58,167 bases of DNA from positions 8,877 through 67,043 of the forward strand of contig NZ_AOJK01000040.1 in NCBI RefSeq assembly GCF_000336875.1, given 5' to 3'. Below, piece after piece: positions 13,238-15,040 of the stretch (its first letter is position 1; every line of letters begins with the position of its first letter). The notes under the pieces were generated by a model that was given only the letters and a program-made list of their open reading frames with translations, ran no database searches and was not told the origin of the DNA. The position numbers and the translations under genes are program-made. This DNA is from Halorubrum californiense DSM 19288 (GTDB lineage Archaea > Halobacteriota > Halobacteria > Halobacteriales > Haloferacaceae).

Positions 13238-14515
13238 TTAATTGGACACTCCCACGATACCATCGGTCTGATGACCTCGCATGGCGTCGTGGGTCACGGT
13301 TGGGGCGTCCACGGCCCCCGATGCCTGCCGTCGCACCTTCCTGACTTGGGGAAGGCTGTTGAGACCAGGCACATTCCAGTCTTGATGTTTCATAATGCCT
13401 TTCACGGCGATGTTGACGCTTGCACTTCGGTCGCTGTGGTCTTGATGTCCGCATGACCGACATTTGAACCGCTTCTTGTTGCGGTTCACTCGTTCGGCGT
13501 GACCACACATTGGGCACCGTTGACTCGTCTTGTACGGGTCAATCCATCCGGTTGGAATCCCCTCAAACGATGCCTTGTACGACGTGTAGTATTGGAGAGT
13601 GCGGAAGGGGAGATGGTGTAAGCGTCGGTTCATCCGCGTTCCGTAGTCGATACTGTCGCGCATCTCTTTGAGGTCTTCAAAGACGATACACGGCTTGTCG
13701 AACTGCCGGCTCCACTCCACAATATACCGAGACACCTTGTGGAGTCTGTCGCGGACGAACCGTTTCTCGCGTCCTTCCAGCGTGGCGTGAATGCTATCTT
13801 TTCCCGCGTTCTGGACACGCTTTCGCATCGTGAAGTAGCGGTGGCGCTCAAACTTGATCTCGGGAAAGTCAATAACCAACGTGTCTTCGACATCATCTTC
13901 GAAGAGCGCAGTGAGAGCCACGTTGTCTTCGTTCACGTCTACGCCAATAACCGTTCGTGAGTCCAGTTTGTCTCGAACGGTCTGCTCGGTGTTGGTGACG
14001 GTAACGTGTAATTCAGGGTTCTCGTTTTGAAACAGGACTTCCGCCGTCCCAATCTTCCAATCGTCGCTCGTGAGCGCGGTTTTAAGGATGTCGTAGTGAG
14101 CACTGTCACCACAGAGGACGCCTTTGACGTGCTTGTAGGGTTTTGCGCTAATGCGGAACGCTACGTCGCCATCCTCGGTGAGCGTCAGGTTGTACCCTTC
14201 CTCGTAGTTTGCTCGGAGCGGGTAGGTGCCATCTTTGGTGTGGCTTGGCCGACCGAAGTCGTCGTACTCGTAGTAGTTCTCCATCGCATCAAGTGCTTTG
14301 GCGACAACACGCTGTGTCGTGTTTCTGACAAGATCGACATCGGCCGCCACGCGGCCGGGAATCGTGTCCCAATCTACGCCTTCTTTGGCGAGTCGAATGG
14401 TTTCGTTGTACGCCGACCGTGCCCTACGGGTAGCGTCTTTGAGCAGACTCTCGTTGTTACTCTGGACATCGAGTTGGAAGTCCAGCGTTTTGACGAGAGC
14501 CTGTGTGTCGGTCAT
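13238..14515 (-). CDS. tnpB: TnpB (IS200/IS605 accessory protein, RNA-guided nuclease family)
   Basis: 425 residues, within family range. RuvC residues are intact: D193 in IGVDVNEDNV, E280 in CIVFEDLKEM, and D362 in DHSDRSASVNIA. The zinc finger (C334, C337 and C352, C355: CPMCG, CRSCG) lies between RuvC-II and RuvC-III as usual. The N-terminal half is the WED/REC-like region (LDFQLDVQ start). TnpB family members cut DNA next to a TAM using an omegaRNA, as established for bacterial TnpBs; activity here is inferred. The C-terminus extends about 45 residues beyond RuvC-III and is basic. The start overlaps the stop of the 47-residue ORF by four bases. Base composition (less GC) differs from the chromosomal neighbours, consistent with transfer. 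Confidence 0.92.
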   Translation of the reverse strand: MTDTQALVKTLDFQLDVQSNNESLLKDATRRARSAYNETIRLAKEGVDWDTIPGRVAADVDLVRNTTQRVVAKALDAMENYYEYDDFGRPSHTKDGTYPLRANYEEGYNLTLTEDGDVAFRISAKPYKHVKGVLCGDSAHYDILKTALTSDDWKIGTAEVLFQNENPELHVTVTNTEQTVRDKLDSRTVIGVDVNEDNVALTALFEDDVEDTLVIDFPEIKFERHRYFTMRKRVQNAGKDSIHATLEGREKRFVRDRLHKVSRYIVEWSRQFDKPCIVFEDLKEMRDSIDYGTRMNRRLHHLPFRTLQYYTSYKASFEGIPTGWIDPYKTSQRCPMCGHAERVNRNKKRFKCRSCGHQDHSDRSASVNIAVKGIMKHQDWNVPGLNSLPQVRKVRRQASGAVDAPTVTHDAMRGHQTDGIVGVSN

Positions 14516-14655
14516 TCTTGATTATTGGGTTGGACATGACGGTAGTGAAGGAGGAGCGTACGGAGTACGCTGTCGAAACTCGTGTGCCCCTCCTCGTCCT
14601 TGAGTTCGTCAAGATCATCGTACACGGTGTTTGATACCTTAAGTTGCTTTGTCAC
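14512..14655 (-). CDS. 47-residue ribbon-helix-helix-like protein overlapping tnpB
   Basis: A GTG-started frame reads MTKQLKVSNTVYDDLDELKD, then an EEGHTSFDSVLRTLLLHYR helix, ending QPNNQE. A short N-terminal strand (KQLKVS), a helix, a turn and a second helix fit a ribbon-helix-helix or VapB-type antitoxin fold common upstream of haloarchaeal IS1341-type tnpB genes. The stop codon TGA (14514-14512) overlaps the tnpB ATG (14515-14513), so tnpB translation is probably coupled to it. TATA-like AGTATACTTT lies at 14681-14690, 26 nt from the GTG, giving a leaderless transcript. It may repress the shared promoter. Family name is uncertain; the reading frame and overlap are directly seen. Confidence 0.75.
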   Translation of the reverse strand: MTKQLKVSNTVYDDLDELKDEEGHTSFDSVLRTLLLHYRHVQPNNQE

Positions 14656-14680
14656 GTCTGTTGATTGTTTTCCATACTCA

Positions 14681-14711
14681 AAAGTATACTGCTAGTAACT
14701 CACAAGTAACT
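14681..14711 (-). promoter_or_regulatory. Promoter with direct repeats between the tnpB operon and tnpA remnant
   Basis: AGTATACTTT (14681-14690) is a good TATA box for leftward transcription of the 47-residue ORF and tnpB. Upstream of it AGTAACT occurs twice, at 14694-14700 and 14705-14711, 11 bp apart, so both face the same side of the helix. Ribbon-helix-helix proteins often bind such spaced direct repeats, and the 47-residue product is a candidate binder. The operator role is inferred. Confidence 0.4.
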
Positions 14712-14749
14712 TCAAAGAAGACATTTGAGTGGTAGCTACTCTGGTAGGT

Positions 14750-14955
14750 ATGGGTGAGAAGCAGTCGAATCACTCGGAATACAGCCTCAAATACCACTTC
14801 GTGTAATGTCGTCAAGCGGAGATTGACTGCTTACAAATCACCGACCTGTAATATACGACGTGTCGTCATGCGACTTTTGCATGATTCGAGAAATTACTGG
14901 AAGCGAGTCTTCGTGGTGTGTATGACGGGTACGGCTATGAGAAGTGGTTCGGATA
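14750..14955 (+). pseudogene. Degenerate TnpA (IS200-type Y1 transposase) remnant
   Basis: ATG 14750 opens MGEKQSNHSEYSLKYHFV and hits TAA at 14804. HSEYSLKYHFV followed by a Cys/Trp-Pro-Lys-Tyr-Arg segment is the usual N-terminus of IS200 TnpA. Beyond the stop the same frame continues as CRHATFA then, after more stops, FEKLLEASLRGVYDGYGYE, which resembles the next conserved helix of TnpA (L-x-x-L-x-E-V-x-D-E-Y-G-Y-E). The gene then runs into the tRNA 3' end without the HUH or Tyr motifs, so it is truncated as well as nonsense-ridden. It is divergent from tnpB, as in IS605 itself. Confidence 0.65.
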
Positions 14956-15040
14956 TGCGTGGGACCGGATTTGAACCGGCGGACCTCTACAGGACAGCGC
15001 CCTCAACGCTGCGCCGTTGGCCTGGCTTGGCTACCCACGC
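14956..15040 (-). tRNA. tRNA-Leu (anticodon GAG)
   Basis: The minus strand folds as a class II tRNA of 85 nt. Acceptor stem GCGTGGG (5', 15040-15034) pairs with CCCACGC near the 3' end, with discriminator A. D arm is GCC...GGC. Anticodon stem CAGCG/CGCTG encloses loop TTGAGGG, giving anticodon GAG for CUC/CUU leucine codons. The variable arm (CCTGTAGAGG) is long, as in Leu tRNAs. T arm: GCCGG, loop TTCAAAT, CCGGT. CCA is not encoded and no intron is seen. Its 3' end touches the truncated insertion element, a frequent integration site. Confidence 0.95.

What the first reader, a model, noticed from the sequence alone, without database searches (positions are those of the whole stretch)
14512..14655. 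A 47-residue RHH-like protein translationally coupled to TnpB
The GTG-start frame has ribbon-helix-helix character, a TATA box at leaderless distance, and a 4-nt stop/start overlap with tnpB. It is short enough to be skipped by usual gene calling. It could be a repressor of tnpB or a partner of the nuclease.
Basis: partly seen in the sequence, partly recalled or inferred. Interest (0 to 1): 0.6.

Follow-up and report, generated by a model that had tools for sequence, protein, structure and literature searches.

The report
Swappable regulator gene in tnpB transposon
A 47-residue DNA-binding-type protein really is encoded just before and overlapping a transposon's RNA-guided nuclease gene, and in otherwise near-identical transposons this gene and its promoter are replaced as a block by either of two unrelated small DNA-binding proteins, which suggests an exchangeable repressor cassette controlling both the nuclease and the transposase.

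Summary
The gene is real. It lies on the minus strand (14655→14512), overlaps tnpB by 4 nt (ATGA), and is under strong purifying selection (dN/dS about 0.13). All 19 close homologues found in 392 Halobacteriales genomes sit directly before a tnpB. RHH fold is supported but not proven: low-confidence model, with CopG as the nearest solved structure.

The larger finding lies outside the given coordinates. The element is an IS200/IS605 transposon with divergent tnpA (decayed here) and a sot2652-like ωRNA. In relatives whose TnpBs are about 78-88% identical, the stretch between the tnpA start and the tnpB start is one of three unrelated cassettes: this RHH gene (A), a ParG-like RHH gene (B), or a DUF2080/AbrB-like gene (C). 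Each brings its own promoter and joins tnpB at the same place. tnpA and tnpB are equally similar within and between types, and types A and C are not clades on the TnpB tree.

Best reading: an autorepressor of the tnpA/tnpB divergent promoter, exchanged as an operator-plus-repressor block. Operator evidence is strong for C (palindrome on the TATA box in 28 of 28), weak for A. A nuclease partner or antitoxin is unlikely. No binding data exist, and copies in one genome do not avoid sharing a type.

The parts
14512..14655 (-). Type A small gene, 47 aa, GTG start at 14655, RHH-like
   Evidence: ORF and translation; purifying selection in this frame only; conserved place before tnpB
14512..14515 (-). 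ATGA stop/start overlap between the small gene and tnpB
   Evidence: Sequence; same 4-nt overlap in 17 of 18 type A, 7 of 9 type B and most type C named loci
13238..14515 (-). tnpB, 425 aa, RNA-guided nuclease; RuvC-type motifs GVDV (191), FEDL (279), DRSAS (362) and two CxxCG present
   Evidence: NCBIfam guided_TnpB 6.6e-41; Pfam Cas12f1-like_TNB 6e-17; motifs
13251..13374 (-). sot2652-like sense-overlapping RNA (omegaRNA) at the 3' end of tnpB
   Evidence: Rfam RF02657, 38.2 bits, E 3.4e-6, below the gathering score of 61
14516..14749 (-). Exchangeable cassette (type A): everything between the tnpA start and the tnpB start, 234 bp
   Evidence: Cassette lengths A 231-236, B 181-189, C 203-221 bp; identity within types 0.87-0.94, between types 0.62-0.67, while flanks do not differ by type
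14677..14690 (-). TATA-like element AGTATACTTTTGAG, 22-35 nt before GTG
   Evidence: Motif positions; TTTTAA at -28 to -30 in 12 of 21 type A copies
14683..14711 (-). Candidate operator: AGTTACT (14711-14705), AGTTACT (14700-14694), AGTATACT (14690-14683), spaced 10-11 bp
   Evidence: only loosely conserved in other type A cassettes, so weak
14750..14941 (+). Remnant of divergent tnpA (Y1/HUH transposase, residues 1-49 of 132), with stops
   Evidence: tblastn E 4e-11, 44%; intact 132-aa relatives match Pfam Y1_Tnp 4.5e-39

Best explanation
The 47-aa protein is the element's own transcriptional autorepressor. It probably binds as a dimer to the short control region between the divergent tnpA and its own gene, and so holds down both the transposase and, in the same operon, TnpB and its omegaRNA; the ATGA overlap ties TnpB translation to its own. 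Regulator, promoter and operator form one cassette that recombines as a block between IS605-type elements through the nearly identical tnpA and tnpB starts, and two unrelated regulators (ParG-like RHH; DUF2080/AbrB-like) fill the same slot in sister elements. SHOWN: the gene, its conservation and selection, the constant linkage, the three cassette types, the exchange, the C-type palindrome on the TATA box. INFERRED: DNA binding, repression, translational coupling, effect on tnpA. In the window tnpA is dead, so only the RHH-tnpB operon remains to be regulated.
For: Close homologues always precede tnpB. dN/dS about 0.13. Among 74 named loci with TnpB at least 75% identical, 18 carry A, 9 B, 32 C, 15 none, with no internal stop in A, B or C. 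B matches Pfam ParG, C matches Pfam DUF2080 and NCBIfam NF033496. tnpA and tnpB flanks are equally similar within and between types; the cassettes are not. Labels need 17-19 changes on the TnpB DNA tree (minimum 2), and single origins of A and C are rejected (AU p 6e-5, 1e-4). Regulator genes occur with tnpA: 57 of 62 with, 0 of 15 without (Fisher p 4e-12). GTATAT-N7-ATATAC at -25 to -6 in 28 of 28 type C, overlapping TTAAGTA at -29 and the tnpA-side TACTTWW at about -31; a degenerate version (GTCTATCCAAAGTCTATAC and similar) recurs before DUF2080 genes joined to a distant TnpB family. RHH-like helices; nearest folds CopG, NikR.
Against: No binding, expression or ribosome data. RHH assignment is by a low-confidence model (pLDDT 66) and sub-threshold profiles. 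Operator conservation for type A itself is weak: no palindrome above shuffled. Copies in the same genome do not avoid sharing a type (5 of 14 genomes all-same, about 5.4-6.1 expected), so the immunity idea gains nothing there. B alone is not rejected as one clade (p 0.10). The link between regulator and tnpA could arise from joint deletion.
Confidence: 0.68

Rival explanations
1. The small protein is a protein partner of TnpB, for instance an inhibitor, loader or antitoxin-like guard of the nuclease.
For: Constant overlap with tnpB. All three regulator families resemble antitoxin DNA-binding domains, and a DUF2080 protein was validated as a type II antitoxin (PMC10440598).
Against: Nearly the same TnpB (5' end 84-90% identical at DNA level whatever the type) is joined to three unrelated small proteins, which would all have to contact the same surface. 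The protein has only about 6-8 residues after its second helix, so no toxin-binding tail is evident. 15 sister TnpBs have no regulator at all.
Confidence: 0.1
2. The protein is a DNA-binding regulator whose main role is activation, or control of host promoters, rather than repression of its own element.
For: RHH proteins can activate or act on other promoters (general knowledge). The window copy is kept although tnpA is dead.
Against: Regulator and promoter are exchanged as one block, and in type C the palindrome lies on the TATA box, which favours repression. tnpB is still intact in the window, so it remains a sufficient target.
Confidence: 0.12
3. The small gene is a bystander: an old fused antitoxin or coupling leader whose translation merely delivers ribosomes to tnpB.
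For: The 4-nt overlap is usual for reinitiation; a leader role would explain why unrelated small genes can replace each other.
Against: A mere leader would not keep its amino-acid sequence (pN 0.04 against pS 0.41 for the window copy), nor would replacements all be DNA-binding-type families each with a matching promoter.
Confidence: 0.06

Closest known systems
DUF2080 family transposase-associated protein (Pfam PF09853, NCBIfam NF033496)
   Same: Occupies the identical slot between tnpA and tnpB in sister elements, same overlap, similar size; already named by NCBI as transposase-associated
   Different: Unrelated sequence and, by its AbrB-like motif, probably an unrelated fold; type A matches no DUF2080 model
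CopG, ParG and other minimal RHH repressors
   Same: About 45-aa strand-helix-helix protein, first gene of a short operon, probable autorepressor; CopG is the best Foldseek hit
   Different: Similarity is not significant (E 0.4); here the operon is a transposon nuclease, not plasmid copy control or partition
VapB-type antitoxins (Pfam PF02697)
   Same: Weak profile match over 33 residues, 17.7 bits
   Different: Below the curated cut-off; no toxin gene, no toxin-binding tail evident
Immunity-region exchange of lambdoid phages (repressor plus operators swapped as a block; from general knowledge)
   Same: Regulator and its control region replaced together between otherwise homologous elements
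   Different: Here in an insertion sequence with an RNA-guided nuclease; cross-immunity is untested, and same-genome copies show no avoidance
TldR, TnpB-derived RNA-guided transcription factors
   Same: Also a link between TnpB and transcription control
   Different: There a nuclease-dead TnpB relative is itself the regulator; here the TnpB motifs look intact and the regulator is a separate protein

Membership tests
IS200/IS605 transposon | Y1 (HUH) transposase TnpA | tested here: met
   Intact 132-aa tnpA in 25 relatives, Pfam Y1_Tnp 4.5e-39; only a remnant in the window
IS200/IS605 transposon | TnpB with RuvC and zinc-ribbon motifs | tested here: met
IS200/IS605 transposon | omegaRNA overlapping the 3' end of tnpB | tested here: inconclusive
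   sot2652 E 3.4e-6 but below the gathering score
IS200/IS605 transposon | Subterminal hairpins and defined ends | not tested
   Element ends were not mapped
Ribbon-helix-helix superfamily | Strand followed by two helices in about 45 residues | tested here: inconclusive
   Two helices at 9-22 and 27-41, no strand in the monomer model, pLDDT 66; top folds CopG and NikR but E > 0.4
Ribbon-helix-helix superfamily | Dimer binding DNA by a two-strand sheet | not testable with these tools
   Needs purified protein or a dimer model
VapB antitoxin family PF02697 | Profile score above the curated cut-off | tested here: not met
   17.7 against 27.9 bits
Type II toxin-antitoxin system | Adjacent toxin gene neutralised by the antitoxin's tail | tested here: not met
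   The only partner is TnpB, shared with two unrelated small proteins; no tail evident beyond helix 2
DUF2080 transposase-associated protein | NF033496/PF09853 match | tested here: not met
   Not found for the window protein; met by the type C protein

The most novel reading that the evidence does not exclude
IS605-type transposons of haloarchaea carry exchangeable immunity cassettes: a repressor and its operator, of at least three unrelated kinds, control transposase and RNA-guided nuclease together, and swapping the cassette frees a copy from repression by resident sister elements.
Probability: 0.35. Interest if true: 0.78.

Novelty: new variant of a known kind. Interest (0 to 1): 0.62.

Why it matters
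How IS200/IS605 elements keep TnpB, the ancestor of Cas12, in check at the transcriptional level is poorly known; published work stresses post-transcriptional control (PMC12558985), and stringent copy-number control of haloarchaeal tnpB elements has been inferred without a mechanism (PMC3119063). A dedicated, exchangeable repressor at the joint tnpA/tnpB control region would supply one. It also gives three natural regulator-operator pairs in front of nearly the same nuclease, and a type C copy in Halobacterium salinarum R1 (OE_RS13905-OE_RS11975), where the idea can be tested directly.

Tried and rejected
Viral contigs: 386 pattern matches for the type A alignment, none a confirmed relative. 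Phage records: no match. Avoidance of same-type copies within a genome, as the immunity idea predicts: not seen (5 of 14 genomes all-same, 5.4-6.1 expected). Palindromic operator for type A: no better than shuffled. PDB sequence search with the type A profile: only weak hits, among them the archaeal-virus RHH protein AvtR at E 0.34. NCBIfam: only SAG1252 at E 0.08. Literature: DUF2080 occurs in one held paper, as an antitoxin in a toxin-antitoxin network; no held paper found on RHH or DUF2080 genes as regulators of TnpB. Most subscription papers are not held, so absence is not proof.

Full report
OBSERVATION. The reading frame exists at 14512-14655 on the minus strand: GTG at 14655, 47 codons, stop overlapping the ATG of tnpB in ATGA. 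tnpB (13238-14515, minus) is a full-length RNA-guided nuclease gene by NCBIfam (6.6e-41) with the RuvC-type motifs and zinc-ribbon cysteines present. An Rfam sot2652-like RNA lies over its 3' end (E 3.4e-6, below the gathering score).

IT IS A GENE. Close homologues in the family and all 19 close homologues in 392 genomes of the order lie directly before a tnpB. Substitutions are synonymous in this frame (pS 0.21, pN 0.03) and not in the other two; the window copy has diverged from the rest at synonymous sites (pS 0.41) while keeping its protein (pN 0.04).

WHAT THE PROTEIN LOOKS LIKE. The model has two helices (9-22, 27-41) preceded by eight residues that would be the strand of a ribbon-helix-helix dimer; confidence is low (pLDDT 66). 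The Foldseek list is headed by CopG and NikR and includes Arc and MazE9, none significant. Pfam VAPB_antitox scores below its cut-off. More distant relatives (about 45-54% identical over 35 residues) overlap a DUF499 gene on haloarchaeal plasmids in the same 4-nt way, so the family also serves as first gene of another operon.

THE LARGER FINDING. Looking at sister TnpBs showed that most do not carry this gene but another small gene at the same place. Eighty named loci were fetched and classified. Of the 74 with a TnpB at least 75% identical, 18 carry type A, 9 carry type B (MTKRLSVDFEDDVYKEFSKKC..., Pfam ParG 2.8e-5), 32 carry type C (MANRFEIDGEEVLDGEVKPFGNSAHVTVPK..., DUF2080 transposase-associated protein, NCBIfam 3e-19) and 15 carry none. 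None of the A, B or C copies has an internal stop.

THE ELEMENT HAS A DIVERGENT tnpA. Upstream, on the opposite strand, lies a 132-aa Y1 transposase gene (Pfam Y1_Tnp 4.5e-39), intact in 25 of the loci. In the window only residues 1-49 remain recognisable, with stops (14750-14941, plus). Regulator genes go with tnpA: 57 of 62 loci with a regulator have recognisable tnpA, 0 of 15 without (Fisher p 4e-12). Joint deletion of the left half of the element could cause this.

THE CASSETTE IS EXCHANGED WHOLE. Between the tnpA start and the tnpB start there are 231-236 bp (A), 181-189 bp (B) or 203-221 bp (C). Within a type these are 87-94% identical, between types 62-67%, which is about what forced alignment of unrelated DNA gives. 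On either side, the first 60 bp of tnpB are 90% identical within and 89% between types, and the first 60 bp of tnpA 94% and 93%. On the TnpB DNA tree the three labels need 17-19 changes where 2 would do, and single origins are rejected for A (AU p 6e-5) and C (1e-4) but not B (0.10). Homologous recombination through the conserved gene starts is the simplest mechanism (inference).

EACH CASSETTE BRINGS ITS OWN CONTROL REGION. In type C, GTATAT-N7-ATATAC stands at -25 to -6 from the regulator start in 28 of 28 loci (perfect arms of 6-9 bp; shuffled mean 4.0), on a TTAAGTA box at -29 that, read on the other strand, lies about 31 nt before tnpA. So one box may serve both leaderless promoters, and a protein on the palindrome would block both. 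Before DUF2080 genes joined to a distant TnpB family (about 26-30% identical over part of its length) a degenerate form of the same palindrome recurs at the same place. In type B a TTAAGTA box at -33/-34 overlaps AGTAT repeats. In type A the two TATA-like elements are separate, at about -29 for the RHH gene and -30 for tnpA, facing away from each other. The repeats AGTTACT, AGTTACT, AGTATACT at 14711-14683 in the window are the best operator candidate, but relatives keep them only loosely.

MECHANISM. The best-supported explanation is an autorepressor acting on the tnpA/regulator-tnpB divergent promoter. What is shown: gene, selection, linkage, exchange, palindrome in type C. What is inferred: binding, repression, translational coupling, effect on tnpA. 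A TnpB-partner role is unlikely, since nearly the same TnpB is served by three unrelated proteins. The comparison with phage immunity regions is an analogy: its prediction that copies in one genome should differ in type was tested and not supported.

GENERALITY. In the window's own genome two TnpBs of other subfamilies also have such genes: L131 with another RHH-like ORF in 4-nt overlap, and L132 with a DUF2080 gene 9 nt away. Type B relatives (61-64%) on plasmids stand between annotated tnpA and a TnpB 62% identical to the window's. Most of the about 25 full-length TnpBs inspected in this genome have no such gene.

NOVELTY. DUF2080 is already named transposase-associated, and TnpB regulators of another kind (TldR) are known. 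I found no held paper that describes the RHH genes of types A and B, the shared slot, or the exchange. The library lacks most subscription journals. I file it as a new variant of a known kind: regulator genes of IS200/IS605 elements.

Noticed in passing
L071, L088, L110 (and probably L165): In some type C elements an extra ORF of about 190 aa (MSSSTTTESARTASIVQILCEAEGKDVV...) sits between the DUF2080 gene and tnpB; in L108 a 74-aa zinc-ribbon-like ORF does.
   Followed up: partly
L005, L058, L068, L092, L096, L126 and others, in tnpA: tnpA is interrupted at a few recurring places by short inserts (SSSENRRFSGSRET..., CRQSEIDCLQISGLQ, CPKSSKAKLCVPRGI) that look like small mobile repeats or PATE-like pieces; the window's tnpA remnant carries the CRQ.EIDCLQI type.
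   Followed up: no
L131 and L132 (own genome, C50:72233 and C77:327): Two other TnpB subfamilies in the same genome are preceded by small DNA-binding-type genes (an RHH-like ORF in 4-nt overlap; a DUF2080 gene at +9).
   Followed up: partly
L156 (own genome, C67:64644): A 58-aa ORF (MSVDLTEIEEAEVDLEEWLVEQ...) with no Pfam or NCBIfam match overlaps another tnpB by 4 nt.
   Followed up: partly
L018, L019, L020 (plasmids): Distant relatives of the type A protein overlap a DUF499 ATPase-like gene by 4 nt in a conserved gene block on haloarchaeal plasmids.
   Followed up: partly
window 14956-15040, minus: A tRNA gene with a long variable part and possibly an extended anticodon arm lies just beyond the tnpA remnant.
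   Followed up: no
own genome G000: 48 TnpB-profile matches in one 3.7-Mb genome, many of them fragments.
   Followed up: no
window 14027-14521, plus: A 164-aa open frame antisense to the 5' part of tnpB; probably a codon-bias artefact.
   Followed up: no
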